Positions 5,330 to 34,175 of a DNA stretch of 64,000 bases are shown here, piece by piece. The notes below the pieces were generated by a model that did no database searches, had not been told where the DNA came from, and worked only from the letters and a program-made list of their open reading frames with translations. Every line of letters starts with the position of its first letter. Within the stretch, counting starts at the first letter, position 1. The position numbers and the translations under genes were made by a program. This stretch comes from Lunularia cruciata (lineage: Eukaryota > Streptophyta > Marchantiopsida > Lunulariales > Lunulariaceae), in assembly GCA_948567375.1 (NCBI GenBank), contig OX419761.1, positions 60,363,089 to 60,427,088 on the forward strand, written 5' to 3'.

Positions 5330-5349
5330 CTCAAAACTACAATGACAAA

Positions 5350-7923
5350 ATGTCAAGCAATTTTCCTTCGCCGTTGAGAAGTCATCTTGCAGGTGATCGG
5401 GGAAAGGGAAATAGAGTTGTACTCGGGTTAGTGCGCAAGGGAGAAGTCGCGAGAGAGAAATCAAGAGACAATAAGAAAGCAGAAGAGATGGGAAGAGGGA
5501 CGAAAAACTTTGAATTTGCAGTGAGAAATCATGCGATTTGGAGAATAGATGTAGTAGCAAGGATCGAAGTCTTGAGCCAACTTTGGATCACTTTTTTGGC
5601 ATGGAACTGGAACGTAAGTTTTCCAGGATTCATGACAGAAATCATCGAGAGTAAATGTCTCAATGGTCCCGAGGAAGAAGGGAAGAGAGGAAATCCGGCT
5701 CGCTGGACAGAGTCGGATTGGAGACTTGTACTCGGGAAGGAGGCGGGTTCGGAGCAGGGAGCCACATTCTTGGGGAAAGGAGAGATAGCCTAAGAAACAC
5801 AAGAGGTGAGAGATGCCTTCTCGTCAAAGAGGACAAAGAATGGGTACAAAGTTGAGAGCTACAAAGACCCTGTGAGGAGAGGAATTGTGAGTGCACTAAT
5901 GGCCATCCTGAAGCCGGAGAGAACCACTTATGTGATGAAGCACCAAGCGGTGTTCTTTCACAAGTTATTTGCAGGAGAACCGATCAATTGGGCAAGGTGT
6001 TTTCACGGGAGAACGAGGCAGATGGTGTGGAATCTGCGGGATAAGTCACCTCCACACTACATTGTACCATTTGCAACACATTTCTACCTTGGGTTGAATT
6101 TGATCAATTTGGCGGAGCGCAATAGAATGGTGTCTCATTTCCATCCTGACTTGAGAAGAGAAGTTGACGCAAAGGAGCAGCAATACATTCTCCAAATCCA
6201 GAGCACGGACGACTACTATACGAAGACAGGGAAAAACGTGGAGGTCGTGGTAAGTACCCCGACGAAGAAGAGAACTCGGCAAGCAAAAGCCAAAGAAAAC
6301 AAGAAACCTTGGAAGATGCAGAAAAATAACCCGAGGCGAGGGGTGGTGGTGATTGAGTCAGAAGATGAAGACTCAGAAGGAGAAGCCGAGCTCAAAACGG
6401 AGGACTCGGAACGTGAGGAGGAACCTGAGCTGACACTGCAGAGTGGAGATACTAGCAGTGACAATGAAGACGGTGGAGAAATGACCTCGGCACCAGCGGC
6501 TGAAGAATATAAAGAAGAAGTGCAAGCCGAAGTAGAAGCCAAAGACAATGCGGCGCTGGAAGACAAAGTACCGGTGCTAGAGGAGAAGAAGATTGCAGTA
6601 CAGCGAGGAGTTTGCTCAAGATGTAAGGCAAAGTGTGAAGCGGGGCCGAGTAGAGCGAAGGAAGAGGTAGAAGAAAGCTCGGGTAGTGAGGCGTCGATTC
6701 CGATATGAAGACTCCCGAGAAGAAGGCGAGTATCGGGAGAACACAAAGAGAGAAGAGAGACTACTCCGTGGGTGGAAGAAGTTGCCAGTAATGGAGTAGA
6801 TTACCTGCAAGAAGTAGTGTGCCTGCTGTTGTTGGAGTTGGAACAAAAGAAGAATGAGATGCAGTCTACTTGTCTAGAGGTAAAGACTGTTTTGTAGGTC
6901 TTATCAAGATTAGAAGAAGAGAACTCGGAGTTGAAGAAGAGTGTAACCCGAGGTGAGGAAGAGAGAGAAGTACTACAAGCAGAAGCAGTAGAGCGAAGTC
7001 AGGTAATCAAAGACCTGAAGAGAGAAGTGAGTTATCGAGAGGATCTTGCAAGGAAGAGTGACATCGCAAGGGAGAGACAGGTAGCGGAGCACAAAATCTT
7101 GAAGCAGCAGTTTGCTGATTCAAGAGTAGAGCTTATCCATGCTATGGCAAGGGTAGCATCAAAGGACCAAGAGCTCGATCGAGTGATGGAGAGTATGGAG
7201 GAGAAGAAGCAGCTCTGGCAAAGAGAGTTGTCTGTGCGGTATAGAGAAGAAGAGAGATTACGAGAATTGCTTCGTAATCAGGAAGAGAAAGTTGTACAGA
7301 AGGAGAAAGAGAAGGAGGCGGTGAAGGCCGAGTTCAAAGAAGAGTTGGCGATGTACAGAGAGGAATGGCTTGCAGATCGGGAACAAGAACAAAAGACAAG
7401 ATTGGAGCCATTAAAGGAGATAGTCCTCAGAGTGAACGCAATGTTAAGTACAGAAGCCTGCGTTCGAATTGAAGAAGCACAATTGCACGAGTTGAAGTTG
7501 TTGGTGCAGGAGACGAGGCAAAGACAAGCGAAGGACACTGATTTGAATGCCTTGTTAATTGGTCTCAGAACTCGCGTAGACAGAAAGATTTTAGAGATAG
7601 AGGATAACATTTCAATTAGATTAGACTTAGTGAAAATAGAGTTAGAAAAACTTTGGCAGGATGTTAAGGCAAAACCTGAAGTAGATAACATAGGAATCTA
7701 AATGTCTTTGGAGTTGCCCTCAAAGACATTAGAGAAGAGTGGGTCAAAGGATGAAGAGTTAGATAGATTACCCACTAGTGCAATTTCAGATCAGGAAAGA
7801 GAATTGCTGGATCTGGTAGAAGAAGTAGGAGATGTGAAACCCGAGGAAAATGTAGTAGGAAGTAAGATTACTTCGGGGTCGGGTTTGAAAGCTGAAGAAG
7901 AAGTAGACATTGGATCGGAGTAG
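5350..7923 (+). pseudogene. LTR-embedded ORF of element A (conserved domain plus coiled coil)
   Basis: One frame runs from 5350 to the stop at 7921-7923, broken by four nonsense codons (5791 TAA, 6706 TGA, 6895 TAG, 7699 TAA). Each is sense in a sister copy. The candidate starts are the ATG of MSSNF at 5350, 27 bases after the TATA start, and the better placed conserved ATG at 5488. Layout: a conserved globular region (FLAWNWNVSFPGF; ARWTESDWRLVLG; YVMKHQAVFFHKLFAGEPIN; QMVWNLRDKSPPHY), a Lys/Arg-rich stretch near 6260-6330, an acidic Glu/Asp/Ser region to about 6700, then a long coiled coil (about 6900-7500) rich in Glu, Lys and Leu, and a short acidic tail. Function unknown. It has no zinc knuckle, membrane segment or signal peptide, so it is not a classic env. 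A distant relation to plant transposon ORFs should be tested. Confidence 0.8.
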
Positions 7924-14449: not shown

Positions 14450-16150
14450 TGTGGTACCCACATTTTTCATAATTTTTTTTTGAAGAAGTGTACAATGAAG
14501 TCATATGCACCCAAATGGCATTTAAAGAAGGAGAATTATGTCTTTGCTTTGCAACCCAAAGTAAAGTGACTTCCTATGAGAACCAAAGTACTTGGATCAG
14601 ACTTGGCCGGAGAAACCCAAAGTAAGGAAACTTCATCCCGGGGTGATCAACCTGATAGAAAGATGGCATATCAACTTTTCTTCAGATTTTTCAATCAAGA
14701 AAGGACAGGTAAGAAAATGGCTAAGGTGCAAACAACTAAATCTTGATAGTACCAAAACTCATGCAAAAGATGTGAGTTTTAGTGAAGACTAATAGAAGAA
14801 TGACCAATCAGCAAAGCACTATAAAATCAAAACTTATTTGAGGGATTTCAAAATGTCACATAAGTATCCTAAGCCACAGAGTAGCAGACCTGAAGGAGTG
14901 CTTGTAGCAAATCCAGTTGATAGCTTGATGTTTAACAATCCTAAGGGAGTTAGGATCTTGAGACCAGGAGAGGAATTATCTTTCAGCTACCATGCGTTAG
15001 AGATCACACAATGCCAAGGAAAAGTGAGAAGAAGAGTCCGTCACTTGCAATGAGAAACCCGGTTATTTGAAGATTAGACATGATAGCCATGATTGAAGTA
15101 ATGAGTAGGCTTTGTATCACATTTCTGGCTTGGAACTTGATCTTGAGTTTTCTTGGGTTCATGGCAAAAGTAGCTGCAAGTGATTGTGAGGAAGGGCCTG
15201 AGACTAAGGGGAAGAGAGAAAATCTGGCTTGATGGATAGAGTTGGATTGAAGATTGGTGTTGGGAAGAGAGGTTGGTGATGAAATTGGGGCAATGATCCT
15301 TGGGAAGGGAGAGCTTGCAGAGGAGACAAAAAAAATTTGCAATTCCTTCACTACATTGTGTATGAAGAATGGGTACAAAGTCAATACTTATTGGGACCCA
15401 GTCAGGAAAAGCATCATTGGGGTGATGATGGCACTCTTCAAGCCGGATTGCTCAAAGTATGTAGTGAATTATTAGGATGTATTTTTCCATCAGATGTTTG
15501 CAAGAACGCCTATGAATTAGGAAAAGTGCTTTCACCAAAGAACACAATAGATGGTGTGGTGTTGGAGAGATCAAGATGCTCCTCACTATTTGGTACCATT
15601 TGCTACACATTTTGACTTTGGACTGAATATGATGAAGAAGATTGAGTGAAGGAAGATGGTGTCTCACTTTCATCCCAACTTATACAAGAGGCTAGAGATG
15701 AGGAGGAATAACAGTATATCCAACACATCCAAAGTATCAATGAACACTATGCAAGAATGGGGCAGCACATGAGGGTAGCAATGAACATCTTGAAGACAAG
15801 GAAGCGCAGTCATCTTGAGCAAAGTATGTCACCAATTCAGTCAAAGAAGACATGGAAGGTGAACCCAAGGCAAGATGTCATGGTAATTGATGAGTCATCA
15901 AGAGCAAAAGAGTCAAAAGGCAAAGCCTATTATAAGTCAAAAGACTTGAAAGAAGAAGAAGAACCGGAGTTGATGCTGCGGAGCAAAGGGTCGAGCAGCA
16001 GAAGTGAAGGTGAGGAAAAGTTCAACAATGGGGCAAAGACAATGCTGACAATGAAGAACAGGAGTCTCATGCGGCAATTGATTGTATGGAGGGAGGAGGA
16101 AACTTATGCCCAACAACACCATACTGCCAAGCAATGCTTTGCATTGACTG
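14450..16150 (+). repeat. 3' LTR of element F, 3'-truncated
   Basis: Begins TGTGGTACCCACATTTTTC right after the purine tract, with a TATAAAA box at 14820-14826 and the first half of the LTR ORF. Similarity to the other LTRs fades near 16080-16150; the coiled-coil part and the TTGTCACA terminus are missing. Confidence 0.7.
14853..16150 (+). pseudogene. LTR-embedded ORF of element F (diverged, partial)
   Basis: The ATG (MSHKYP) at 14853 lies just after the TATA box, as in the other copies. The first ~200 bases differ from them. From about 15050 the conserved blocks reappear: FLAWNLILSFLGFM, LGKGELAEET, YWDPVRKSIIGVMMALFKP, VFFHQMFA, CFHQRT and FHPNL. An acidic region follows. The blocks that match A, B, C, G and J are the same conserved ones, while linkers differ. 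Stops and frameshifts are frequent and the C-terminal coiled coil is absent. Confidence 0.6.
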
Positions 16151-17627: not shown

Positions 17628-18422
17628 TGTGACAACCCGACAAATATCACTTTTGCGGTAATCGGGTAAGTAAAGTTCGTTCCCGCAGAGATACGAGTCA
17701 GAAATGTCCAAATACAAAGTCAAACAGTAACATGTAGTTCTTCTTGAGTTCTTCTCTAGTCTCTCAGGTAGAAACCACACCCAGAAGAGAGTAACAAGCA
17801 CTGACTCGCAGTCTTGTCACAAATTCACACTCCTTAATCACAACTCCATCAAATCTTTCCAAACAATCTTGATTGTGATGATTTAGGCTCTCCCAAAAAC
17901 GGCACTTCACTGCAAAACAACTTCGCCTCAGAATTGTGTTCCACCCTTCCACTGAAGGCACAACTTCCTCGATCAAAATTGCTTCACATCAACTTCGCAC
18001 TGCACTCACAAATGCAGAATACTACCAACACTACAATTCCTCTCAGATCTGTCAAGGCATTGCTTCGATTGCACTTCACTCAGGATCAAACACACAGAAT
18101 GAAGATCAAGGCTGTGGAATCCAACATCCAACAAACACTCTGATTTGCACTTCAAATTTCTCCAAACACTCACAAACACCAGTACAAAGTTGATACTCGG
18201 AATCAAGCTCAAGCGACAAGCAGTGCTTCACAACACTTTGCTTTATCTATTCTCAGAAATAATGAGCACTGAACAACAATTTCTTGCGAATGCCACTCTT
18301 AAATAGTGAACAAATCGACAGTTCTAACAACTATACCATTTCTACAACAACTGTTCTAACCTGCAGATCCAAAATGACAATGCACCTCTTCATATCTGCC
18401 CCTTCAAATCTCAAATCGGTTA

Positions 18423-20996
18423 CTAATCCGATCCGATGTCTACTTCTTCCTCGGCTTTCAAACCCAAACCCGAAGTAATCTTACTTCCTACTATTTTGTC
18501 CTCGGGTTTCACATCTCCTACATCTTCTACCAGATCCAGCAATTCTCTTTCTTGATCTAAAATTGCACTAGCGGGTAATCTATCTAACTCCTCATCCTTT
18601 GACCCACTCTTCTCTAATGTCTCTGAGGGCAACTCCGAAGACATTTGGATCCCGATGTTATCTACTTCGGGTTTTGCTTTAACATCCTGCCGAAGCTTTT
18701 CTAACTCTATTCTCACTAAGTCTAATCTAATCGTGATATTGTCTTCTACTTCTAAGATCTTCCTATCGACACGAGTTCTCAATTTAATCAACAAGGCATT
18801 CAAATCTGTATCTTTTGCTTGTCTTCGCCTTGTCTCCTGCACCAACAACTTCAACTTGTGCAGACGCACTTCTTCAATTCGAACGCTGGCCTCTGTACTT
18901 AACATCACGTTTACCCTGAGGACTATCTCCTGCAATGGCTCCAATCTTGTCTTCCTTTCTCATTCCCGATCTGCAAGCCATTCTTCTCTGTACATCACCA
19001 ATTCTTCTTTGAATTTGGCCTTCACCGCTTCCTTCTCTTTCTCCTTCTGTGCAACCTTCTCTTCCTGATTACGAAGTAAGTCTCGTAATCTCTCTTCTTC
19101 TCTATATCTCGCAGCCAACTCTCGCTGCCAAAGTTGCTTCTTCTCCTCCATACTCTCCATCACTCAATCGAGCTCTTGATCCTTCGATGGTACCCTCGCC
19201 ATAGCATGGATGAGTTCGACTCTTGAATCAGCAAACTGCTGCTTCAAGATTTCATGCTCCGCTACCTGTCTCTCCCTTGCAATGTCACTCTTCCTTGCAA
19301 GATCTTCTCGATAACTCACTTCTCTCTTCAGGTCTTTGATTACCTGACTCCTCTTGCCTGCTTTTGCTCACAGTAATTCTCTCTCTTCCTCTCCTCGGGT
19401 TATACTCTTCTTTAACTCCGAGTTTTCTTCTTCCAATCTTGATAAGACTTGCAACACAGTTTTTACCTCTGGACAAGTAGACTGCATCTCCTTCTTCTTC
19501 TTCTCCATCTTCACCAACAGCGGGCATACTACCATCTGCAGGTAATCTACTCCATTACTGATACCTTCGTCCTCCCGCGGAGTGGTCTCTCTTCTTTCTT
19601 CGTGTTCTCCCGATACTCGCCTTCTTCTCTGGAGTCTTTGTATCGGAATCGATGCCTCACTGCCCGAGCTTCCTTCTGCCTCTTCCTTCACTCTACTCGG
19701 TCCTGCTTCACACTTTGCCTTACGTCTCGAGCGAATTCCTTGCTGTATAGCGATCTTCTTCTCCTCGCACACTGGTACTTCGTCTTCCAGCGCCGCATTG
19801 TCTTCGGTTTCTACCTCGGCTTGCATTTCTTCTTCGTATTCTTCAGCCGCTGGTACCGATGTCATCTCTCCTCCTTCCTCACTATCAGTGCTCGTATCTC
19901 CACTTTGCAATGTTAGCTCAGGTTCCTCCTCACGGTCCAAGTCCTCCGTCTTGAGCTCAACTTCGCCTTCTGAGTCTTCATCTTCCGACTCAATCACCAC
20001 CATTCCTCGCCTCGGGTTATTTTTCTGCATTTTCCGAGGTTTCTTGTTTTCTTTGGCTTCTGCTTGCTGAGTTCTCTTCTTCGCCGGGGTACTTTCAATG
20101 ACCTCCACTTTCTTCCCTGTCTTCGCGTAGTAATCATCTGTGCTCCGGATTTGGAGAATGTATTGCTGCTCCTCCGCGTCGACTTCTCTTCTCAAATCAG
20201 GATGGAAATGAGACACCATTCGATTACGCTCCGCCACATTGAGCAGATTTAACCCGAGGTAAAAATGGGCTGCAAATGGTACAATGAAGTGTGGAGGCGA
20301 CTTATCCCGCAGATTCCACACCATCTGCCTCGTTCTTCCGTGAAAGCACCTTGCCCAATTTATCGGTTCTCCTGCAAATAACTTGTGAAAGAACACCGCT
20401 TGGTGTTTCATCACATAGGTAGTTCTCTCCGGCTTCAGGAGGGCCATTAGTGCACTCACAATTCCTCTCCTCACTGGGTCCTTATAGCTCTCAACTTTAT
20501 ACCCATTCTTCGTCCTCTTTGATGAGAAGGCATCTCTCACCTCCTGCGTTTCTTGGGCTATCTCTCCTTTCCCCAAGAATGTGGCTCCTTGCTCCGAGCC
20601 TGCCTCCTTCCCGAGTACGAGTCTCCAATCCGACTCTGTCCAGCGAGCCGGATTTCCTCTCTTCCCTTCTTCCTTGGGACCATCGAGACATTTACTCTCG
20701 ATGATTTCTATCATGAATCCTGGAAAACTTACGTTCCAGTTCCATGCCAGAAAAGTGATCCGAAGTCGGCTCAAGACTTCGATCCTTGCTACTATATCTA
20801 ATCTCCGAATTGAATGATTTCTCACTGCAAATTCAGAGTTCTTCTTCCCTCCTCCCATCTCTTCTGCTTTCTTTTGGTCTCTTGATTTCTCTCTCTCGAC
20901 TTCTCCCTTATGCACTAACACGAGTCCAACTCTATTTCCCTTTCCCCGATCACCTGCAAGATGACTCCTCAATGGCGAAGGAAAATTGCTCGACAT
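18423..20996 (-). pseudogene. LTR-embedded ORF in the 3' LTR of B (best preserved copy)
   Basis: One frame from the ATG at 20996 (MSSNF) to the stop at 18423, 857 residues if the three TGA codons at 19370, 19166 and 18962 are ignored. The first 543 codons are uninterrupted. An upstream ATG at 21047 precedes the TATA box and is ACG or ACA in sister copies, so it is unlikely to be the start; the ATG at 20858 (MGGGKKNSEF) is conserved in all full copies. Regions: conserved N-terminal domain (about 20860-20170), basic patch and acidic middle (20100-19650), coiled coil (19540-18700; blocks such as EEKKQLWQREL and RYREEERLRDLL), short acidic tail. The 18962 stop is shared with the 5' LTR copy, so it was present before insertion. 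Function not recognised. Confidence 0.82.
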
Positions 20997-21016
20997 TTTG
21001 TCGTTGCAGTTTCGAT

Positions 21017-21023
21017 TTTTATA
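21017..21023 (-). promoter_or_regulatory. TATA box, 3' LTR of B
   Basis: TATAAAA on the minus strand, 385 bases into the LTR and 21 bases before the conserved ATG at 20996. The same box is at 30964-30970 in the 5' LTR. Confidence 0.6.
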
Positions 21024-21407
21024 GAGTTGCACTTCTTTGTCTTCCATTGCTTCGAGTTTCTACCAAGAAATCACACCTCCGGCATGCACCTGTCACTGTC
21101 ACCCCACCTTTGCACGTATGAGCCGCTAATTTTGAAACGCCCCCTTCTTGAATTTCTCGCCCCGACGAAAGGTTGTTAGACTGTCTTCACCTCGGGTTGA
21201 GCTCCCCCCGAGCCAAAGACAATTTACTTTGTATTGTATGCTGACACGGCATTTCAGAGTACTTTGCTTTATGACCCGAAGTCACTTTACTTCGGGTTTC
21301 ACCCCGAAGACAATTTTCTTCGTCTTCTTTGGCCATACAGGCGCAATCCGACTTCTCTATACACTTCTTCTCCTTTATTTTGGAAAAGGAAAAATGTGGG
21401 CACCACA

Positions 21408-21420
21408 TAACCCCTCCCTC
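21408..21420 (-). other. Polypurine tract of B, overlapping the integrase stop
   Basis: The minus strand reads GAGGGAGGGGTTA immediately before the LTR TGTGG. This is the primer for plus-strand DNA synthesis. The integrase stop TGA (21421-21419) overlaps its first bases, so integrase ends right at the LTR. F and H show the same arrangement. Confidence 0.88.
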
Positions 21421-22600
21421 AAATGTGAGCGTCCCCGCGAACATAGACCTCGGGTGTCTTAGAAACTTCCAAGTCTATGGTCCAATATCTCCAAACTCTC
21501 CACCCGTTTACTCGAGTGGCAAAAGGATTACCTTCCAAATCGACGAGTTGCATGGATCCATTTTTGTAAAGATGACGAACTTGATAGGGACCCATCCATC
21601 TCAAATGCAACTTGCCTGGAAAAAATATTCGGCGATTGTCATATAACAAAACCAAATCCCCTTCTCGTACAGTCACAGGCTTGATTCTCTGATCGTGCCT
21701 GACTTTCCTTTGTGCTTGTACTTCTTTTGTGGTTTGCATTGCATTGTCTCTTTTCTCTTCTAACCACATCAGTTGATGAATCCGAAGATCCTGACTTTCC
21801 TCTTCTGACATTCGTTCTTCGCACAGGACTCGATAAGTCGGAACTTCAAATTCAACTGGCAGTATGGGATGCAAGCCATATGTCAAGAAGTATGGGGTTT
21901 GTTTGTTTGTAATCTTCTCTGTCATCCGATAGGCCCATAACGCGGCTGGTAATTTTGTATCCCAATCATAGGCATAATTGACAGTCACCTTATTCAAAAT
22001 TTTACAAAGTAACCCATTCGCTTTTTCCGTTAAGCCATTCGCTTTTGGGTTATAAGGAGTCATCTTCCGATGTTTAATCTGAAAATACTTGGTTAACTCC
22101 TCCATTACAGAGTTCAAAAAATGTGTTCCTCGGTCATTGACCAATTCCAGAGGACACCCATATCGGGAGATGATGTTTTGAAAGAAAAATTCCGCCACAG
22201 TTTTAGCATCATCTCTGCGAGTTGCTTCCGCTTCAACCATCTTGGTAGCGTAATCAGTGCAAACCAAAATATAGCGCTTTCTTGTGACTCGGGTCACTGG
22301 TTGAATGGGACCTACAAAATCAATCCCCCATTTCTCAAAGGGAGCCAAAGGCAAAATTGGTTTCAAAGGCCATTGAGAAGTGGCCGTCGGCTTCCCCGTT
22401 CTCTGACACGCATCACAGCTTTGAATATGAGCATGTACATCTTTGTACATTGTAGGCCACCAATACCCTACCAAAAGAATTTTCTTTACAGTATTCTTCA
22501 GAGCATAGTGTCCTCCTGATGCCTCGGAGTGTAAAGATTCAATTACTCCTCCTACTTTGTACGACTCCAAACATCGCCAAAGTACTTCGTCTTCGCCCAT
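21419..22600 (-). pseudogene. int: Element B integrase (nearly intact)
   Basis: Open from 22888 to 21419 without interruption (489 codons including the RNase H end). HHCC: HSEASGGHYALKNTVKKIL, then CDACQRTGKPT. Catalytic residues: Asp in GIDFVGPIQP (near 22320), Asp in VNDRGTHFLN (near 22134), Glu in NGLTEKANGLL (near 22026). C-terminal DNA-binding tail with LLYDNRRIFFPGKLHLRWMG and NGWRVWRYW, ending GDAHI-stop. No chromodomain. It shares its frame with RNase H, as part of one Pol. This domain itself shows no inactivating change. Confidence 0.93.
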
Positions 22601-24105
22601 CTTAAATAAAATGTTGTGTTTAAGCTGGTACGGCCCCATTTTCTGGAGAAAGACTGCCCGCTGTTCCGGATCCATCCCCTCAGGACAATGGAGAGTATTC
22701 AGATAATTATATTCATCTGCATACCTCGTACTTCTCATTGCTGATAAGTGATACAACTCTTCGTTAGGGAACCGATTGTCAATTTCCCACTCCTGGTCTT
22801 GAGTGTCTAACCTGGACAAGAAGTCCGCATTCGAATGCGAAGCTCCCTTCCTCACTTGTACAATATACGCGAATTCTTGTAATAACAAGATCCATCTTGC
22901 AATTCATCCCGATAAATCTGCCTTCTTGACCAGATGTTGCAATGCATAATGGTCAACATAGAAGACAAACTCATACCCCAACAAATAATGCCGAAATTTC
23001 TTGCATGCATACACCATTCCGAGTGCTTCTCTTTCAGTCGTCGAATAATTCTTTTCAGAAACTGAAAGTTGTCGGCTGGCATAATACACCGGGTATTCTT
23101 TCTTCTTCTCGTCCTTCTGACTTAAGACAACCCCAATGGCCATGGACGAAGTGTCCACATACACATGAAAAGGGACGTCCCAATTCGGGGCCCTCATGAC
23201 TGGTGCTTCAACCAGTTTCTTCTTCAACACTTGGAAGGCTTCTTCTTGATGTGCTTCCCACAGATAGTCTTTGGATTTCTTCAGAAGCTTTGTAAGTGGT
23301 GCAGCAAGCACTGCATAGTTTGACATGAGGCGTCTGTAATATCCGACATGTCCCAAGAAGGCTCTCAGCTCCCGAATGTTCTTCGGGGATTCCAAAGCTG
23401 TGATTATTTTAACCTTCTCAACATCGACTTCAATACCTCGGCTTGACACCCGATGCCCCAAAAGAATTCCCTCCTTCATTGCGAAGAAGCATTTCTCCGG
23501 GTGTAATGACAAGCCGGCAAAACGACACCTTTCAAACGTTTGGCAAAGATAATCTCTATGTACATCCCGTCGTCCAAACACACAAAAGTCATCAATAAAA
23601 ACTTTGACAAATTTGCACAGGAAATCTTTGAAGATCAAATTCATCATCCGCTGGAAAGTGCGGGAGCATTACACAACCCAAAGGGCATTTGATTGTAAGC
23701 GAAAGTGCCCCAATCGGTCGTGAATGTAGTTTTATCCTTGTCTTCTTCTCGAATGGATACTTGATTGTACCTTGAAAATCCATCGAGAAAACTATAGCAA
23801 GGATGCCCAGCTACCTGATCTAAGATTGTATCGGTAAAAGGCAAGGGATGATGATCTTTCCTTGTGACTGCGTTCAATTTTTGGAAGTCTTGGCACACTC
23901 GGATCTTCCCTGTTTTCTTCTTCGAGACAATGACAATGGGGGAGACCCATTCATTGCTTAAGACAAGGAAGATGATTCCGGCCCCTAAGTACTTGTTGAT
24001 TTCATCTTTTACCAAGAGCAAGTACTTCGGGTTCAGGCGGTATTGTCGCTGCCGAACCGGAACTGCACCTTCAATCAAATCAATCCGGTGTTCTCCAAAT
24101 TCTCA
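22601..24105 (-). pseudogene. pol: Element B reverse transcriptase and RNase H
   Basis: RT blocks WVSPIVIVSKKKTGKIRVCQDF, DGFSRYNQVSI, MPFGLCNAPA and FIDDF (Asp pair at 23593-23588), then LGHVGYYRRL. RNase H has Asp in VYVDTSS, Glu in EREALGM, Asp in FYVDHYAL and Asp in NADFLSRL. Defects: TGA at 24105-24103 (IP-stop-EFG; A has IPQEFG), a one-base loss in the codons after NAPA near 23667 that shifts the frame, and TGA at 22906-22904 in LSG-stop-IARW. Confidence 0.92.
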
Positions 24106-24299
24106 TGGAATACCCGGCATTTGATCAATCGACCAGGCGAATACATCCTGGAATTCTATAAACAGGGCAGTGTATCCTGCCAACTCCTCCGAAGTAATTG
24201 TCTTCGAGATTTTTAAAATTTTTCCTTCAGTGAGTAACACCTCTTGACAGTCATCGGGGTTGATGACTCCTTCAACGTGGCTTACTCGGCTTATCCCGA

Positions 24300-24960
24300 G
24301 GTGAGCGGCCATCAAACCCCCTCCCTCCAAGTCAGGTTCACCCGAGGCGAGGTCATATGGATCTTCGTCGTCAGCCTCTACCTCGTAGCATTCCAAGTAA
24401 TTAACTTGGACTTCTTCTTCGGATTCGTCTGAAGACGAAGACAATGAATCTCCGGACTCGTCCTCTTCTTCTGACGAACTTGTTTCCCTGAGATGGGGAA
24501 CCTTCGTCCAACTCACAGTCACCAGCTTCTGATCCTCGGACGAAATGTCCTTGAATCTTAACTTCTGCTGATGCCAATCCACTACAACTTGGGCACTATA
24601 CAACCAGGGTCTGCCGATCAACAGAGGGTAACCAGTTTTTGTCACTGGCCGCAACACGATGTAATTCAACTTGAAGGGTACCCCTCCAATAATCGTGGTA
24701 ATGTTCGACAACATGCCCAAGGGCCGTCTCCTGGTTTGATATGCAAACTTCAAAACTCGGGATGTTGGTTCAAACGTATGATACCCGAGTCGATTCGTAG
24801 TATCTTCAGTCATGACATTCACACCGGACCCAGAGTCAATGGGTATCGATGTGATCATGCAACCTGCAATCTCCGCGTCTACCTCGGGAGATCCCAAATC
24901 TTCTTGTTCAATATGATAGATAGCAGGCAGGTCCTTCTTTGACATCGACCTCACCTTCTT
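24300..24960 (-). pseudogene. pro: Element B aspartic protease and acidic linker
   Basis: Inside a 571-codon open frame (25818-24103) that also holds two zinc knuckles. The catalytic motif is IDSGSGVNVM, Asp near 24837, with LLIGRPWLYSAQVVVDW further on. The acidic linker (SSSDESEEEVQVNYLECYEVEADDEDP) leads to RT. The protease coding itself is intact. Confidence 0.9.
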
Positions 24961-27374
24961 GAGGGCCAAATTAAGCTGTCTCTTGTACAGCTTGTTATCT
25001 TCCCACAATTGCTTAAATGTAACATTGGCATTTGTGGTGGCCAAGTCGGCTACAATATCATATTGGGGAACTCCTCCCAATTTGACCGTCTTTGTCTTTG
25101 GCTTTGAGTCCGAGGACTCTCCATGCTCCCTCTTGACTTTGGGACGCTTCAAAATGGTGACGGGCTTGCTGATGGCCTTAACCCGAGCTTCCTCGGGTTG
25201 GCCTACCTCGGCTTGAATCAGACCCTTTACTTTGGATCGGATGTCCGCCGGAAAAATTGGAGACTTTGTCTTCGTCTCTTCTTCCAAACTCAGTTCCCGA
25301 GTCCTAAGTAATGCCTCCGTTAATTCTTTCTGCAAGGCTTTAGCTTTAGCTTTTGCAAGGATCTTTTCCTCCTTGGCCGAAAGAATTGCTTTTGGGCGCT
25401 GTCTCTTCGCCTTTTGAGAAGACGACGAGGTCGTACTCAGTTCTTCGGTATCACGCTTCTTCTTGGTGGAGCGTGTCTCAACTTTCAAAATTTCAAGGTC
25501 TGGCCATTCTCCTTCTGAGACCGGACTCACTTCGTGAGGTCTTTCTTCCTCAAGAGTTATACAATTTACATTCGTATCCCCCTTCGGCTGAAGTGCTGCA
25601 CGCTCAGCGGGGGTCTGTACATATTTTACAAGAGGCTTTGGGTTCGGCGGGTGAGGGCATTGGTTGCCCGTATGCCCCAATCCTTTACAATTTCCACATA
25701 GGGGAACGTACTCAATTTGCCTTCTTGGCTCGAGACAATTTGGAGACCAATGTCCCATCGAGCCACAATTATAACAGGCTCTGGGCGCAACATTCTGAGG
25801 GCGATTTTGGTTGCTCATCGGTGGTCTTCATGCAGGAGCATTGGGGTTATACTCCCTGGGTCCAAACCTCGGACCTTGATACGATGTGCTCGCTTGAGGC
25901 TGTACCTCCTGAGTTTGATACACCGCCTCTTCGTCATCGTCTTGGTTCCATCCCGGAACCCAATCAATTTGCTGCACCGGGAATGCATTACAAGTATTGC
26001 ATTCTGTGTTGGTGTGGCCGGATTTGCCACATGCGGTGCACCACACATTAGATCGTCCAAATGCTGGGGCCTTTCTTTGGTCCTTAGCCCCAATCATCTG
26101 GATCTTGAAATCCGAAAAATCCTTGATGAGGGCATCCAGCTTCATATCCGCCTTTGTACACTCTTGGCTGGTGGAGTCACTGGTTTCTTGCCTCCACATC
26201 TTCTGACTCGTCTTGGCTTTGATTCTTCTTTGGATTCCAAAGAAGAGCTTGAAGATGTAAAGGATTCGTCCGAAGAAGGGGAGGTACTGCGCGAAGCTCT
26301 TCTTCTGGGTTTCTTGCCCTTCTTCTCCCGATTTCTCCGGTTACCGGCAAAGTGAGAGTGGGCCGCTTCATAACGAGCGACATGTTTGAGTACTTTATCA
26401 AGGGAAGTTACGTTCCTCTCCCTGGCAAAGATTTGTATCTCTGGTGACAGGCCCCCGAGGAACCAAGTAATGGCTTGGGCATCGGAGTATCCCACCACCC
26501 CCGATTGCTTGGGAACTTGGTTCAATAATGCCATGAACCGCTCAGAGTAGTCTCTCAACTTCTCCTTCTTGCCCTGGTCCAAATCGTTTGGTGCCGTGAA
26601 GACACTTGTATCATAGTCAACCTCCCGAAATCATTCCAGGAAGTTGTTTCTCAAGTCTGCCCAGTCCGATGGTACAAACCCCTTCTGAGTCACATGAGTG
26701 TACCAGCTCCGAGCTTTCTTGCGAAGCAGACTTGGAAAAATTCTTAGTCAATCCGCCGAGTCATGCTCCTTGTTAGCAAAGGAGATGACTTCGAATTCTT
26801 CGATGAATTCATCGGGGTCTTTGTCTTGTTCCGTCCCCTTATACTTCTGATAGGCGTGTCGGGTGACAGGAAGCAAAGTCATCGTTCGATGCACTGGGAT
26901 CGGCTGAGGTAATGTAGAACTTGACGGAACGGAAGAATTGGCTAGAATTGACGCCGTGTTGTCAGCCCAGGGATTCCAATTCGTCAAATTCAATGCAGGG
27001 TCTTCTTCGATAATTTCTACTCTGAGAGGGTAGACTTCAACCCGAGTGGAAGATTCAGGATCAACACCTTCAATAGGTTCTTCCAAATTCCTTCGGGACA
27101 ACCGAGAAATCGTTCGTAGAAGATGTTGACACTCGTCTTCAGTAAGTGTGCCCGCTGTCTTTTCTCAAACAAAGGTCTTCAAGGAAACAACTTCCTTTAC
27201 AGCTTTAGGGGAAGTTGGTGTACTGGGCCGTAATGCATATGTTTGCCCACTCGATTCTTTCTTCTTCTTGGAAGAAGAGGGAGATGTGAAGTAGCCTTGC
27301 CAACCGCCTTTGCGTTTCTTGTGATCAAGTTCTCGCAGGGCTTCTTGCACTTCATGAAGGAGTTGAAACTCCAA
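24961..27374 (-). pseudogene. gag: Element B gag with three zinc knuckles
   Basis: The N-terminal part (from about 27374, MEFQLLHEVQEALRELDHKK) leads to a retrotransposon gag domain (YKGTEQDKDPDEFIEEFEV; ARSWYTHVTQKGF; LRDYSERFMALLNQVP; ITWFLGGLSPEIQIF). A basic, Ser-rich stretch follows, then knuckles at 26040-25999 (CTACGKSGHTNTEC), 25776-25735 (CYNCGSMGHWSPNC) and 25698-25657 (CGNCKGLGHTGNQC). Stops at 27167, 26750, near 26634 and near 25830, and a one-base deletion near 26152 (TACAAAGG; A has TACATAAGG), break it. The true start is uncertain because no copy here is intact. Confidence 0.88.
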
Positions 27375-27551
27375 CGCCTCTCGCTCAGTTTCGTCAACGA
27401 TGGATGGGACGTTTAGACGTTTGTCTTCTTCACGCTGAAGTGCTCGTCTTCAAGCTCTCTCTTCCCGTTGTTCTTTCAATCCAGACATTCATATTGCCTT
27501 CATACCCAGTGTTCAATTTGGCTTCGTATTCTTCCACTTCTGAGATTTGTA

Positions 27552-27569
27552 TCCCTGGCAGCGGCGCCA
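27552..27569 (-). other. Primer-binding site of B (tRNA-Asp type)
   Basis: The minus strand reads TGGCGCCGCTGCCAGGGA, 7 bases after the end of the 5' LTR. It matches the complement of the plant tRNA-Asp 3' end (TGGCGCCGTTGCCGGGGA) at 16 of 18 positions. tRNA-Asp priming is typical of Athila/Tat-like elements. Confidence 0.88.
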
Positions 27570-27576
27570 AAAATCA

Positions 27577-30500
27577 TGTGACAACCCGGCAAATATCACT
27601 TTTGCGGTAATTGGGTAAGTAAAGTTCGTTCCCGCAGAGATACGAGTCAGAAATGTCCAAATACAAAGTCAAACAGTAACATGTAGTTCTTCTTGAGTTC
27701 TTCTTTAGTCTCTCAGGTAGAAACCACACCCAGAAGAGAGTAACAAGCATTGACTCACAATCTTGTCACAAATTCACACTCCTTAATCACAACTCCATCA
27801 AATCTTTCCAAACAATCTTGATTGTGATGATTCAAGCTCTCCCGAAAACGGCACTTGACTGCAAAACGACTTCGCCTCAGAATTGTGTTCCACCCTTCCA
27901 CTGAAGGCACAACTTCCTCGATCAAAATTGCTTCACATCAACTTCGCACTGCACTCACAAATGTAGAATACTACCAACACTACAATTCCTCTCAGATCTG
28001 TCAAGGCATTGCTTTGATTGCACTTCACTCAGGATCAAACACACAGAATGAAGATCAAGGCTGTGGAATCCAACATCCAACAAACACTCTGATTTGCACT
28101 TCAAATTTCTCCAAACACTCACAAACACCAGTACAAAGTTGATACTCGGAATCAAGCTCAAGCGACGAGCACTGCTTCATAGCACTTCGCTTTATCTATT
28201 CTCAGAAATAATGAGCACTGAACAACAATTTCTTGCGAATGCCACTCTTAAATAGTGAACAAATCGACAGTTCTAACAACTATACCGTTTCTACAACAAC
28301 TGTCCTAACCTGCAGATCCGAAATGACAATGCACCTCTTCATATCTGCCCCTTCAAATCTCAAATCGGTTACTAATCCGATCCGATGTCTACTTCTTCCT
28401 CGGCTTTCAAACCCAAACCCAAAGTAATCTTACTTCCTACTATTCTGTCCTCGGGTTTCACATCTCCTACATCTTCTACTAGATCCAGCAATTCTCTTTC
28501 CTGATCTAAAATTGCACTAGCGGGTAATCTATCTAACTCCTCATCCTTTGACCCACTCTTCTCTAATGTCTCTGAGTGCAATTCCGAAGACATTTGGATC
28601 CCGATGTTATCTACTTCGGGTTTTGCTTTAACATCCTGCCGAAGCTTTTCTAACTCTATTCTCACTAAGTCTAATCTAATCGCGATATTGTCTTCTACTT
28701 CTAAGGTCTTCCTATCTACACGAGTTCTCAATTTAATCAACAAGGCAGTCAAATCTGTATCTTTCTCTTGTCTTTGCCTCGTCTCCTGCACCAACAACTT
28801 CAACTCGTGCAGACGCGCTTCTTCAATTCGAACGTTGGCCTCTGTACTTAACATTGCGTTTACCCTGAGGACTATCTCCTGCGATGGCTCCAATCTTGTC
28901 TTCCTTTCTCATTCCCGATCTACAAGCCATTCTTCTCTGTACATCGCCAATTCTTCTTCAAATTCGGCCTTCACCGCTTCCTTCTCTTTCTCCTTCTGTG
29001 CAACCTTCTCTTCCTGATTACAAAGTAAGTCTCGTAATCTCTCTTCTTCTCTATATCTCGCAGCCAACTCTTGCTGCCAAAGTTGCTTCTTCTCCTCCAT
29101 ACTCTCCATCACTCGATTGAGCTCTTGATCCTTCGATGCTACCCTCGCCATAGCATGGATGAGTTCGACTCTTGAATCAACAAACTGCTGCTTCAAGATT
29201 TCATGCTCCGCTACCTGTCTCTCCCTTGCAATGTCACTCTTCCTCGCAAGATCTTCTCGATAACTCACTTCTCTCTTCAGGTCTTTGAGTACCTGACTCC
29301 TCTCGACTGCTTCTGCTCGCAGTACTTCTCTCTCTTCCTCTCCTTGGGTTATACTCTTCTTTAACTCCGAGTTTTCTTCTTCCAATCTTGATAAGACCTG
29401 CAACACAGTTTTTACCTCTGGACAAGTAGACTGCATCTCCTTCTTCTTCTTCTCCATCTTCACCAACAGCGGGTATACTACCATCTGTAGGTAATCTACT
29501 CCATTACTGATACCTTCGTCCTCCCGCGGAGTGGTCTCTCTTCTTTCTTCGTGTTCTCCCGATACTCGCCTTCTTCTCTGGAGTCTTTGTATCGGAATTG
29601 ATGCCTCACTGCCCGAGCTTCCTTCTACCTCTTCCTTCACTCTACTCGGTCCCGCTTCACACTTCGCCTTACGTCTTGAGCGAATTCCTTGCTATACTGC
29701 AATCTTCTTCTCCTTGCACACTGGTACTTCATCTTCTAGCGCCGCATTGTCTTTGGTTTCTACCTCGGCTTGCATTTCTTCTCGTATTCTTCAGCCGCTG
29801 GTACCGATGTCATCTCTCCTCCTTCCTCACTATCACTGCTCGTATCTCCACTTTGCAATGTCAACTCAGGTTCCTCCTCACGGTCCGAGTCCTCCGTCTT
29901 GAGCTCGGCTTTGCCTTCTGAGTCTTCATCTTCCAACTCAATCACCACCATTCCTCGCCTCGGGTTATTTTTCTGCATTTTTCGAGGTTTCTTGTTTTCT
30001 TCGGCTTCTGCTTGCCGAGTTCTCTTCTTTGTCGGGGTACTTTTAATGACCTCCACGTTCTTCCCTATCTTCACGTAGTAATCGTCTGTGCTCCGGATTT
30101 GGAGAATGTATTGCTGCTCCTCCGTGTCGACTTCTCTTCTCAAATCAGGATGGAAATAAGACACCATTCGATTATGCTCCGCCACATTGAGCAGATTTAA
30201 CCTGAGGTAAAAATGGGCTGCAAATGGTATGATGTAGTGTGGAGGCGACTTATCCCGCAGATTCCACACCATTTGCCTCATTCTTCCGTGAAAGCACCTT
30301 GCCCAATTTATCGGTTCTCCTGCAAATAACTTGTGAAAGAACACCGCTTGGTGTTTCATCACATAGGTAGTTCTCTCCGGCTTCAAGAGGGCCATTAGTG
30401 CACTCACAATTCCTCTCCTCACTGGGTCCTTATAGCTCTCAACTTTATACCCATTCTTTGTCCTCTTCGACAAGAAGGCATCTCTCACCTCCTGCGTTTC

Positions 30501-31356
30501 TTGGGCTATCTCTCCTTTCCCCAAGAACGTGGCTCCTTGCTCCGAGCCTACCTCCTTCCCGAGTACAAGTCTCCAATCCGACTCTGTCTAGCGAGCCGGA
30601 TTTCCTCTCTTCCCTTCTTCCTTGGGACCATCGAGACATTTACTCTCGATGATTTCTGTCATGAATCCTGGAAACTTACGTTCCAGTTCCATGCCAGAAA
30701 AGTGATCTGAAGTCGGCTCAAGACTTTGATCCTCGCTTCTATATCTAATCTCCAAATTGCATGATTTCTCACTGCAAATTCAGAGTTCTTCTTCCCTCCT
30801 CCCATCTCTTCTGCTTTCTTTCGGTCTCTTAATTTCTCTCTCTCGACTTCTCCCTTATGCACTAACATGAGTCCAACTCTATTTCCCTTTCCCCGATCAC
30901 CTGCACGACGACTCCTCAACGGCAAAGGAAAATTGCTTGACATTTTGTCGTTGCAGTTTTGATTTTTATAGAGTTGCACTTCTTTGTCTTCCGTCGCTTT
31001 GAGTTTCTACCGAGAAATCACACCTCCGGCATGCACCTGTCACTGTCACCCCACCTTCGCGCGTATGAGCCGCCAATTTTGAAACGGCCCCTTCTTGAAT
31101 TTCTCGCCCCGACAAAAGGTTGTTAGACTGTCTTTGCCTCGGGTTGAGCTCCCCCCGAGCCGAAGACAATTTACTTCGTATTGTATGCTGACACGGCATT
31201 TCAGAGTACTTTGCCTTATGACCCAAAGTCACTTTACTGCGGGTTTCATCCCGAAGACAATTTTCTTTGTCTTCTTTGGCCATACAGGCGCAATCCAACT
31301 TCTCTATACACTTCTTCTCCTTTATTTTGGAAAAAACAAAAAATGTGGGCACCACA
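27577..31356 (-). repeat. 5' LTR of element B
   Basis: 3780 bp, same termini and contents as 17628-21407, with scattered substitutions and compensating small indels. Ends at the primer-binding site side with GGGTTGTCACA. If its TATA box is used, the genomic RNA begins near 30935 and reads through the LTR ORF before reaching gag. Confidence 0.97.
28372..30943 (-). pseudogene. LTR-embedded ORF in the 5' LTR of B
   Basis: Same protein as at 18423-20996 but more broken: a one-base loss near 30672 (CCTGGAAACTTACG against CCTGGAAAACTTACG), TAG in place of TGG near 30590, another one-base loss near 29782, and the TGA shared with the 3' LTR near 28908. The coiled-coil half is open (29640-28909), as is the tail (28893-28372). 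It differs from its sister in the position of most stops, so most damage came after insertion. Confidence 0.8.
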
Positions 31357-31573
31357 GCATTCAACCCAAAGTAAGGAAACTTCATCTCGGGGTGCTCAAC
31401 CCAAGGCAAGGACAATGTAACAACTTTCCTTTGGGGTTGGATATTCAAGAATATACCGCACAAACAAATGGCTAGCCTATGAGCGAGGGAAAATTGACAT
31501 TGATAAGAGCATGCAAAAGGTGTGATTTCTTGGTTGAAGCTCAAAATGAAGAAAGACTGAGGAGATATACCAC

Positions 31574-31580
31574 TATAAAA
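31574..31580 (+). promoter_or_regulatory. TATA box of solo LTR G
   Basis: TATAAAA in CCACTATAAAATTTGG, 21 bases before the ATG at 31601. Same place as in the other long LTRs. Confidence 0.6.
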
Positions 31581-31600
31581 TTTGGGATTGAGACAAAGAG

Positions 31601-34175
31601 ATGACAAGTAATTTCCCATCGCCATTAAGGAGTCATCTTGAGGGAGATTGGGGAAAAAGGATTGTAGTAAGAGACACACTTGTGCATCAAGAGGAGGTCA
31701 AGATCATTAGTCCGGGAGTCGGGCACAAGAATAATCACCAACCTAGAGTAGAGGAGAGTAAGATGGGAGGTGGAAAGAAGAACTCAGAATTTTTAGTGAG
31801 AAATCTTGCAGTTCAGAAGTTAGATGTGATCACAAGAATCAAATACCTGAGCAGGCTTCAGATCACATTTTTGGCATGGAATTGGAATTCGAGTTTTCTA
31901 GGCTTCAGGACCAAAATAGTAGAGAGTAAGTGTCTGGATGGACCCAAGGCAAAGGGTAAGAGAGGAAATACGGCTCCATGGACAAAGTCAGATTGGAGGT
32001 TAGTACTTGGAAGAGAGGCGGGTGAGGAGCAAGGAGCCACATTTTTAGGGAAAGGAGAGGTAGCTGAGGAAACCTAGGAAGTACAAGACACCTTTTCTTC
32101 AAAATGCACAAAGAATGGATATAAGGTTGAGAGTTATAAGGACCTATGAGGAGAGGCATCATAGGAGCAATGATGGCCATCTTTAAGCCGGAGCAAACCA
32201 CTTATATGATGAAATATCAAGCAATGTTTTTCCATAAGATGTTTGCAGGGGAACCAATCAATTGGTCAAAGTGCTTCCATCAGCTCATGAGACAAATGGT
32301 GTGGAATTTGCAGGATAAGTCACCTCCATACTACATTGTGCCATTTGTAATCCATTTTTACTTGGGATTGAATCTATTGAATATAGCGGAATGACACAAG
32401 ATGGTGTTGCACTTCCATCTTGACTTAAGGAGAGATGTTGATGCGGATGAGCAGCAATACATTCTTTAGATCAGAAGTAGTGACAAGTACTACACACAGA
32501 CAGGGCAGAGCATGAGATTGGTGGTGAATGCTCCAAAGTCAAAGAAGAGGAGTCAACCTGAAGAAGAAGTAGTGGCGACAAGACCACAGAGGACTAGGAA
32601 AGTGAACCTGAAGAAAGACCTGGTGGTAATAACGTCATCGAGAGAGGAATCAAAAGGAGAAGCCAAGTACAAGTCAGAAGACTTGAAGAGAGAAGAATCT
32701 AAACTCATGTTGTAGAGTGGTGAAGCAAGTAGTGAGAGTGAGGATAGAGTAGAGATGCAACCGGTACCAAAGGAAGAGAGAGGAAAGCTAGAGATGGTAG
32801 ACGAAGATAACTAGAAGGAAGAAGAAGAAGTTCCAAAGAAAGAGGAGAAGAAGGTTATCATTCAAAGATGTATCCAATCCAGAAGAAACATGACGTATGA
32901 GGTGGGGCCAAGATGAAGAAGAAAAATGGAAATTGAAAGTTTGGGGAGTGAGGAATCAATTCCAATTAGGTGACTTTGGCTGAGGAGAAGAGTGTCAAGC
33001 AAAGAAGAAGCAAAGAAGGAGAAAAGCCCACAAGCAAAAGGGAACCAAACCGGAGGAGTGAAGTATCTACGGGAGATTGTCTATCTGTTGCTGATGAAGC
33101 AGGAGGAGAAGAAGAAAGAAATGAAATCAGAGAATCTGGATGTAAAGATGGTGGTGCAAGTGTTGGTGCGGTTAGAAGAAGAGAACTTGTAATTGAAGGA
33201 GAGTATAACCTTGGGAGAGGAGCAAAAGGAGGTACTAAGAGTAGATGCAGTAGTCCAAAATCAGGTGATTGAGAATTTAAAGAGAAAATTAGGGAGTAGA
33301 GAGAGAATAATAGAGCAAAATGTCATAGCCATAGAAAGATAGATAGTTGAGTATGAAATCTTGAAATAGAAGTTTGCTGATTCTTGATTAGAAATCATCC
33401 ATGGTATGGCAAGGGTAGAAGAGAAGGAGCAAGAGCTCAATAGAGTGATGGAGAGTGTAGAAGAGAAGAAGCAGCTATGGCAAAGAGAATTAATAGTGAG
33501 GTACAAAGAAGAAGAAAGATTGAGGGAGTTACTTCATAATCTAGAAGAGAAGATAGTGCAGAAAGAGAAGGAGAAGGAGAATATGAAGGCAGAATTTGAG
33601 GCAGAGCTGGCAATGTACTGAGAAGATTGGCAAGCAGATTGAGAAGTGAGAGAAGAATGAGGCTTGAGCTGTTGAAGGAGATAGTAGTGAAGATGAATGC
33701 AATGTTGAGTACTGAAGCCATTGTAATAATTCAAGAAACGAGGTTGCATGAGTTAAGATTGTTGGTGCAGAAGACAAGGAGAATACATGCAAAGGATAAG
33801 GATTTGAATGCTCTATTGATTAGCCTTAAAACTTGTGTAAATAGGAAGATATTGGAAGTGGAAGATAATATCACAATTAGATTAGATTTAGTTTAGTTAG
33901 AAATAGATAAACTTTGGAAGGATGTAAGAGCAAAACCCAAAGTAAAAGAGACAGGAGTACAAATATCTTTGGAGTTGCCATTGGAGGTATTAGAGAAAGA
34001 TGGGTTGCATGGAGAAGATGTATTTAGATTGCACATGATGGGAATTGCAAACCTGGAAGAAGAAATGTTAAAATTGGTAGAAGAGTTAGTAGTTGGGAAA
34101 CCCGAGGAGAGAGTAGTATGTGAGGTTCCTCCAAGATTGGAAGCCAAGGAAGAAGTAGACATTGAATCGGAGTAG
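31601..34175 (+). pseudogene. LTR-embedded ORF of solo LTR G
   Basis: The ATG at 31601 (MTSNF) follows the TATA box; the stop is at 34173-34175. The conserved N-terminal domain (FLAWNWNSSFLGF; APWTKSDWRLVLG; MKYQAMFFHKMFAGEPINW; QMVWNLQDKSPPYY) is 31840-32400. The basic/acidic middle (32510-32930) differs strongly in sequence from A and B but keeps the composition. The coiled coil (33060-33850) keeps blocks such as EEKKQLWQREL and RYKEEERLRELL. Two frameshifts (near 32145 and 33620) and about a dozen stops; long decayed. Confidence 0.75.

What the first reader, a model, noticed from the sequence alone, without database searches (positions are those of the whole stretch)
17628..21407. A ~3.8-kb LTR that encodes an ~810-860-residue protein in sense orientation
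Seen: both LTRs of B, and those of A, C, F, G and J, contain the same long coding region, with a conserved N-terminal domain, an acidic/basic middle and a coiled coil (the last lost or partly deleted in F and in the 3' LTR of C). In B's 3' LTR the first 543 codons are open. Known: plant gypsy elements normally place extra ORFs between LTR and gag or between pol and LTR; protein genes within LTRs are known from some animal retroviruses but are unusual in plant elements. Inference: this is a family-specific accessory protein kept in the LTR.
Basis: partly seen in the sequence, partly recalled or inferred. Interest (0 to 1): 0.9.

Follow-up and report, generated by a model that had tools for sequence, protein, structure and literature searches.

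The report
Conserved gene hidden inside retrotransposon LTRs
In what looks like a liverwort genome, a family of jumping genes carries a complete extra protein gene, apparently with its own promoter, inside the repeats at its ends, so even stray single repeats can keep the gene; what the protein does is unknown.

Summary
Both 3,780-bp LTRs of element B (17628-21407, 27577-31356) contain one long sense frame, 811 codons from MGGG. It is a real gene: between diverged families dN/dS is 0.15 (0.08 in the N-terminal domain), comparable to pol (0.13-0.31), while the two LTRs of B differ neutrally (0.92 against a mutation-spectrum null). Constraint starts at MGGG and fades after about codon 820. Nearly all fetched copies are broken; 1 of 30 is open throughout. 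TATA boxes are conserved before the frame (38 of 40 rows) and after it (42 of 47), and the best conserved of the non-coding windows I could score lies just upstream of the first. I infer a U3 gene with its own promoter. Ten of 13 resolved copies are solo LTRs, the open one among them. No homologue, Pfam family or solved structure was found; the integrase points to liverworts. I found no plant precedent in the papers I could search. The function (nuclear self-regulator?) is inference.

The parts
17628..21407 (-). 3' LTR of element B (3,780 bp)
   Evidence: 95.96% identical to the 5' LTR over 3,782 columns; TG...CA ends, PPT-like GAGGGAGGGG before it
27577..31356 (-). 5' LTR of element B (3,780 bp)
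   Evidence: followed by PBS-like TTTGGCGCCGCTGCC
18423..20858 (-). LTR gene in B's 3' LTR, from MGGG to the end of the frame; three in-frame stops here
   Evidence: constraint begins at MGGG
28372..30805 (-). Same gene in B's 5' LTR; two frameshifts and three stops in the aligned frame
20100..20798 (-). Conserved N-terminal domain (alignment codons 88-320), dN/dS about 0.08 between B and J families
   Evidence: no Pfam or PDB relative found
19260..19559 (-). Helical stretch with heptad periodicity (alignment codons 501-600)
   Evidence: tested on the A copy: heptad power reached by 2 of 500 shuffles; codons 601-700 50 of 500, 701-800 190 of 500, 501-800 as a whole 213 of 500
21055..21079 (-). 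25-bp conserved block upstream of TATA 1
   Evidence: highest of 732 scored non-coding 9-bp windows, of 1,327 possible; at most 3 mismatches in 40 of 40 rows; its 22-bp core occurs 5,134 times in the genome at up to 2 mismatches, reversed control 0
21018..21023 (-). TATA box 1, LTR position 385, upstream of the gene
   Evidence: CTATAAA in 38 of 40 rows across families; CTATAAAA 150-280 bp upstream of the frame match in 20 of 30 copies of the distant D family
18299..18305 (-). TATA-like box 2, LTR position 3103, downstream of the gene; candidate promoter of the genomic RNA
   Evidence: CTATTTAA in 42 of 47 rows; two LTRs are counted twice in these rows, so 40 of 45 distinct
21408..27576 (-). 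Internal region of B with gag, protease, RT-RNase H and integrase
   Evidence: Pfam zf-CCHC, RT_RNaseH, Integrase_H2C2, rve; RVT_1 and protease models only below their cut-offs; a gag capsid-like stretch upstream of the zinc knuckles, recognised by eye
5287..7920 (+). LTR gene copy in element A
   Evidence: 86% protein identity to a genome copy over 886 codons, 4 stops
15029..16116 (+).
   Evidence: 51% and 33% protein identity in two pieces; begins about 580 bp after the LTR start at 14450
31559..34172 (+). LTR gene copy G (diverged)
36069..38678 (-). LTR gene copy C
40075..42020 (-). LTR gene copy F, in the 3' LTR of the F-J/E element; codons 582-785 missing from the match
57848..59779 (-). 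LTR gene copy J, first part of the gene in the 5' LTR of the F-J/E element
49307..50014 (-). LTR gene copy E, last part of the gene in the same 5' LTR, cut off from J by a later insertion
   Evidence: match ends at codon 627 in J and resumes at codon 627 in E; insertion boundaries with GCTC on both sides

Best explanation
The frame is a conserved accessory gene of a Ty3/gypsy retrotransposon lineage, about 811 codons, lying wholly inside the LTR. SHOWN: it is under purifying selection comparable to pol, in several diverged families; a TATA box with a near-invariant upstream block precedes it and a second TATA-like box follows it; solo LTRs carry it. INFERRED (about 0.75): the second box starts the genomic RNA, so the gene is in U3 and has its own promoter, and each LTR is a self-contained expression unit. 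INFERRED (about 0.3): the protein is nuclear (recurrent basic clusters after the N-terminal domain), oligomerises through its helical C-terminal part, and acts on the element's own LTRs as an activator or anti-silencer; being in the LTR keeps gene and target sites linked and leaves a possible source of protein in every solo LTR.
For: dN/dS between B-family and J-family copies: median 0.15 over 240 pairs, 0.08 in the N-terminal domain; third-position share of changes 0.515 and 0.60. The other two forward frames of the five diverged pairs give 0.79-1.51. Against a null that keeps the mutation spectrum, the LTR pair B3/B5 is neutral (0.92), and A, C, L073 and G against B give 0.33-0.47. pol control 0.13-0.18 (B against the 42389-48492 internal region) and 0.25-0.31 (B-A). 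Constraint begins at MGGG and fades after codon 820. Promoter features. Solo LTRs: 10 of 13 resolved of 14 tested, 7 with perfect 5-bp TSD and 3 with one mismatch. Basic clusters recur in B, F, G, J and D; acidic stretch net -23 in 60 residues of B.
Against: No transcript, start site, poly(A) site or protein was observed. TATA boxes are judged by sequence alone; as 9-bp windows TATA 1 ranks at the 84th and TATA 2 at the 93rd percentile of the 732 scored. Stop depletion is no independent support: observed/expected stops are 7/11.4 (A), 10/16.5 (C), 10/30.3 (L073), 20/40.9 (G), but also 2/4.1 in the neutral pair. Heptad periodicity is significant only for codons 501-600, not for 501-800 as a whole. 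Nothing ties the protein to LTR binding. Nearly all fetched copies are broken. The antisense -1 frame is also low (0.26-0.35 in the diverged pairs), which I take as a shadow of the sense frame. Synonymous divergence in the LTR gene is about twice that in pol of the same elements (A-B 0.34 against 0.13-0.15; B-F 0.85-1.5 in four segments against 0.59-0.62), which I can explain only by LTR/internal recombination or unequal rates.
Confidence: 0.5

Rival explanations
1. Same gene, but it is a particle or pre-integration-complex component (nuclear import, packaging, integration targeting) rather than a regulator of transcription or silencing.
For: Basic clusters and helical region fit import or assembly equally well; the review of plant aORFs (PMC7264820, parts 1 and 2 of 3 read) discusses such roles for nuclear aORF proteins.
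Against: A position in the LTR with an own promoter is not needed for a particle protein; no direct evidence either way.
Confidence: 0.25
2. Only one promoter matters: TATA 1 starts the genomic RNA, the gene lies in R-U5 and is the first cistron of the genomic RNA; TATA 2 is irrelevant.
For: TATA 1 and the block above it are very well conserved.
Against: TATA 2 is conserved too, 42 of 47 rows; gag would then lie more than 3 kb downstream of the start, behind a long cistron.
Confidence: 0.2
3. An env-like protein.
For: Sense orientation; in a genomic RNA ending in the 3' LTR it would be the last gene, as env is.
Against: In B's copy no 19-residue window reaches a mean Kyte-Doolittle value of 1.6 (best 1.49); strongly charged middle and C-terminal parts. 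Other copies and signal peptides were not tested.
Confidence: 0.04
4. A captured host gene, or an open frame kept open by chance or base composition.
For: No homologue in any database searched leaves the origin open.
Against: Chance is excluded by dN/dS and codon-position bias. For capture, no host homologue was found, but remote or repeat-masked genes could be missed.
Confidence: 0.05

Closest known systems
Sense aORF/eORF of plant Ty3/gypsy elements (Athila env-like, Bagy2; review PMC7264820, parts 1-2 of 3 read; survey PMC6317226, passages)
   Same: Conserved extra gene in gag-pol orientation in a gypsy family
   Different: Those described in what I read lie in the internal region (mostly between pol and 3' LTR); this one lies wholly inside both LTRs and persists in solo LTRs
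Antisense aORFs of Grande, RIRE2, Retand, PvRetro13 (PMC7264820; PMC11963269, passages)
   Same: Accessory protein gene with, for Grande, its own promoter and a nuclear product; an SMC-like domain in PvRetro13
   Different: Opposite orientation and internal position; no sequence relation shown here
MMTV sag and other U3-encoded genes of animal retroviruses (position recalled; sag seen only in search listings)
   Same: Protein gene in the LTR, duplicated by every integration
   Different: Plant retrotransposon; no sequence relation known; the plant gene is much longer (recalled)
VANC anti-silencing proteins of Arabidopsis VANDAL transposons (PMC10398659, PMC5735166; starts of abstracts in the listing)
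   Same: Proposed mode of action: element-encoded protein that counteracts silencing of its own family
   Different: DNA transposons; the action is reported there and only hypothesised here

Membership tests
Ty3/gypsy LTR retrotransposon | Paired LTRs, PBS, PPT, order RT-RNase H-integrase | tested here: met
   (RVT_1 itself below its cut-off)
Ty3/gypsy LTR retrotransposon | 5-bp target-site duplication | tested here: met
   perfect in 7 and one mismatch in 3 of 10 solo LTRs; perfect for the F-J/E element; not perfect for B itself
Tat lineage (additional RNase H) | additional RNase H domain | tested here: inconclusive
   no such Pfam hit in the three pol-region ORFs scanned; the rest of the internal region was not scanned; no tree was built. 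Marchantia Tat members without it are reported (PMC10508981, passages)
Plant aORF/eORF-bearing elements | extra ORF of at least 250 codons conserved across copies | tested here: met
   the 250-codon limit is that of PMC6317226
Plant aORF/eORF-bearing elements | position in the internal region | tested here: not met
   frame lies within LTR coordinates of both LTRs
env-like proteins | transmembrane segments | tested here: not met
   best 19-residue mean hydropathy 1.49 in B's copy
MMTV sag-like U3 gene | sense gene inside U3 | tested here: inconclusive
   inside the LTR: met; U3 rests on the inferred start site at TATA 2
VANC-like anti-silencing protein | binds family-specific motifs and removes silencing in trans | not testable with these tools
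   no expression or binding data

The most novel reading that the evidence does not exclude
The LTR is a stand-alone gene cassette: a U3 gene with its own promoter encodes a nuclear, oligomeric protein that recognises motifs in its own LTRs and keeps the family active or unsilenced. Because it sits in the LTR, every insertion doubles it and a solo LTR can keep it, so large numbers of 'dead' solo LTRs would form a trans-acting reservoir that sustains repeated bursts of these elements.
Probability: 0.2. Interest if true: 0.92.

Novelty: new variant of a known kind. Interest (0 to 1): 0.74.

Why it matters
The plant accessory genes described in the papers I read lie between the LTRs. A selected gene of about 811 codons inside the LTR changes what a solo LTR is: not only a promoter relic but possibly a coding locus. 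It makes a clear question testable: do solo LTRs supply proteins in trans to their family? It also suggests that repeat-masked annotation can hide a conserved orphan protein family; the promoter block of this one occurs 5,134 times in the genome.

Tried and rejected
Homologue searches: the 497-aa N-terminal part (8,000 candidates scored) and residues 84-316 of the 559-aa frame (1,087 candidates) found nothing among 5.8 billion proteins; repeat masking and the word-based first look make this weak evidence of absence. Pfam scans at E up to 1 or 10 gave only hits far below cut-off for pieces of the LTR frame, and neither the 559-aa frame nor a profile of window fragments found anything in the PDB. 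By eye the N-terminal domain reminded me of plant transposon-associated domains (PF20167, ATHILA ORF1; recalled names); no search supported that, so I drop it.

The 25-bp block is not recognisable in the distant D family (best 9-12 mismatches in 30 of 30 copies); only the TATA box is (20 of 30). An inverted repeat at LTR position 111-134 (arm positions complementary in 241 of 272 cells) was seen as a possible binding site but not tested against a control. The in-frame ATGs before MGGG were rejected as starts: that at 21047 lies upstream of TATA 1, that at 20996 (LTR position 412) only 27 bp after it, and codons 22-54 are weakly constrained (0.34). Stop depletion was dropped as evidence because the neutral LTR pair shows it as well.

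Literature: phrases for an ORF within LTRs gave 3 and 6 papers and a U3/superantigen query 4; I saw listings only, and none describes a plant case. Only open-licence PMC papers are searched, so a precedent elsewhere cannot be excluded. One notebook line misread the 'open_frame' column; corrected.
Full report
What is there. Element B lies on the minus strand: 5' LTR 31356-27577, internal region 27576-21408, 3' LTR 21407-17628. The LTRs are 3,780 bp each and 95.96% identical. They begin TG and end CA, with a PPT-like tract before the 3' LTR and a PBS-like tract (TTTGGCGCCGCTGCC) after the 5' LTR; the flanking 5-mers agree in 3 of 5 positions only. Pfam finds zinc knuckles, RNase H and integrase above cut-off, and RT and protease models only below it; a gag capsid-like stretch upstream I recognised by eye in the printed frames. 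So gag and pol are in their ordinary place and the LTR frame is extra.

The LTR frame. In both LTRs of B a sense frame runs to LTR position 2982, with in-frame ATGs in the 3' LTR at alignment codons 5, 22 and 68 (MGGG, LTR position 550). From MGGG it has 811 codons. It is broken in B: three in-frame stops in the 3' LTR; two frameshifts and three stops in the 5' LTR. tblastn finds it also in A, C, E, F, G and J and, more distantly, at 15029-16116. E and J are the two halves of one 5' LTR: the match stops at codon 627 in J and resumes at codon 627 in E, and the stretch between them starts TGTG and ends TACA with GCTC on either side. F is the partner 3' LTR: PPT before it, PBS after E, TGAAG on both outer sides, F-J 89.2% identical over 2,125 columns. 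So two elements of the window have the gene in both LTRs.

Copies elsewhere. The window lies in an assembly of 565.8 Mb in 74 contigs; the eight large contigs among my loci measure 60-85 Mb. A search with the N-terminal 497 codons scored 86 of 28,113 first-look candidates, all at 90% identity or more; 15 of 86 have no stop in the matched part. Of the 30 fetched (B itself included) one is open over all 878 aligned codons without an indel. These copies were picked for similarity in the N-terminal part, so they over-represent good copies. The D family (40 scored of 5,853 candidates) and the J family (40 scored of 8,691) agree with their queries at only 78-83% and 84-89%, apart from the queries themselves.

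Selection. Copies were aligned to B by column. B-family (30 rows) against J-family (8 rows, J and F being one LTR pair): median dN/dS 0.15 over 240 pairs; 0.08 in codons 88-320; third positions hold 0.515 and 0.60 of changes. B against G: 0.17 over 30 pairs. D against B: 0.22 over 840 pairs in codons 88-250; D against J: 0.16 over 224 pairs, with synonymous sites saturated in many. Within families it is higher (B 0.31 over 435 pairs, J 0.425 over 28, D 0.28 over 378), as expected if decay after insertion is added. The rearranged copy L026 was left out of the B-family counts. In six-frame controls the other two forward frames of A, C, G, L073 and L069 against B give 0.79-1.51; the antisense -1 frame is low too (0.26-0.35), which I read as a shadow of the sense frame. 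A null that keeps each pair's mutation spectrum gives 0.92 for the two LTRs of B (neutral, as it should be), 0.74 for one B-family copy, and 0.33-0.47 for A, C, L073 and G. Stops fall below that null in all six pairs tried, but also in the neutral one (2 against 4.1), so I do not use them. pol gives 0.13-0.18 between B and the internal region of the F-J/E element and 0.25-0.31 between B and A. Windowed values are 0.05-0.27 for codons 68-820, 0.75 for 821-878, 0.34 for 22-54 and 0.66 for 1-21: constraint starts at MGGG. Of 95 stop cells in 29 B-family rows, 85 are CGA-to-TGA, CAG-to-TAG or TGG-to-TAG, the pattern of cytosine deamination; the most frequent stop column is hit in 10 of 29 rows.

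Promoters. TATA 1 (LTR 385) reads CTATAAA in 38 of 40 rows and TATA 2 (LTR 3103) reads CTATTTAA in 42 of 47 rows (45 distinct LTRs, 40 of them with the motif, since two LTRs were fetched twice); the rows span families with dS near or above 1. Of 1,327 possible non-coding 9-bp windows, 732 were covered by at least four of ten diverged copies; the top ones lie at LTR 329-353, ending about 30 bp upstream of TATA 1. The 25-bp block has at most 3 mismatches in 40 of 40 rows. A second high block at 418-428 lies where transcription from TATA 1 would start. The TATA windows themselves rank at the 84th and 93rd percentile. In D the TATA box is kept in 20 of 30 copies but the block is not recognisable. 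The 22-bp core of the block occurs 5,134 times in the genome at up to 2 mismatches, against 0 for the reversed control. From this I infer two promoters: one for the LTR gene and one, downstream of it, for the genomic RNA. The gene would then be U3-encoded. No RNA evidence was available.

Solo LTRs. For 14 B-family copies I could look at both ends; 13 were resolved: 10 have no match to B's internal region on either side (7 with a perfect 5-bp target-site duplication, 3 with one mismatch), 2 are 5' LTRs and 1 is a 3' LTR. Only about 260 bp were available downstream in most. The copy that is open throughout is one of the perfect solo LTRs. Among the upstream flanks of 27 of 29 copies only those of three 3' LTRs share sequence next to the LTR, so no alternative internal region shows up there.

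The protein. An N-terminal domain of about 230 residues, then basic clusters, an acidic stretch (net -23 in 60 residues of B), and a C-terminal part without proline over codons 501-700 in A, with heptad periodicity significant only in codons 501-600 (2 of 500 shuffles; 501-800 as a whole 213 of 500). The basic clusters recur in B, F, G, J and D and look like nuclear localisation signals, which I did not test further. No hydrophobic window of transmembrane strength in B's copy. No Pfam, PDB or protein-database relative.

Host and lineage. Among the 120 listed of 465 integrase matches the best named records are liverworts: Calypogeia fissa, Riccia sorocarpa (76% over 60% of the query), Marchantia polymorpha, Riccia fluitans. 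A paper on Marchantiopsida genomes (PMC9985172, passages) reports for Lunularia cruciata an enlarged genome with bursts of Ty3/gypsy families; this would fit, but the species is not shown. The PBS resembles that of Athila/Tat elements (recalled).

Comparison. The review of additional ORFs in plant LTR elements (PMC7264820, parts 1 and 2 of 3 read) places them in the internal region. [quoted passage not shown] from the passages I cannot tell whether any of its ORFs lie inside LTRs. Phrase searches found no plant case (listings only). Genes in LTRs of animal retroviruses such as MMTV sag are the nearest in position (recalled).

Open problem. Synonymous divergence of the LTR gene is about twice that of pol between the same elements (A-B 0.34 against 0.13-0.15; B-F 0.85-1.5 in four segments against 0.59-0.62). 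LTRs and internal regions may have different histories through recombination.

Verdict. A real, selected gene inside the LTR: about 0.97. Own promoter and U3 position: about 0.75. Nuclear self-regulation: about 0.3.

Noticed in passing
window 1-8714 and 17628-31356: Elements A and B are about twice as diverged at synonymous sites in the LTR gene (0.34) as in pol (0.13-0.15), suggesting exchange between LTRs and internal regions.
   Followed up: partly
window 21274-21297 (LTR position 111-134 of B): Inverted repeat ACCCGAAG...CTTCGGGT in B; its AAGTAAAGTGACTT core is kept, with one change, in F and J and recurs in D; possible dyad binding site, no control run.
   Followed up: partly
window 50015-57846: A later LTR element (direct repeats at 50015 and 57154, TGTG...TACA ends, GCTC on both sides) splits the 5' LTR of the F-J/E element.
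   Followed up: partly
window 31355-31356: Copy G begins, in opposite orientation, right at the 5' end of element B, and B lacks a perfect target-site duplication; a nested or rearranged junction.
   Followed up: no
window 13410-16116: Distant family D keeps the LTR gene and TATA box 1 but not the 25-bp upstream block.
   Followed up: yes
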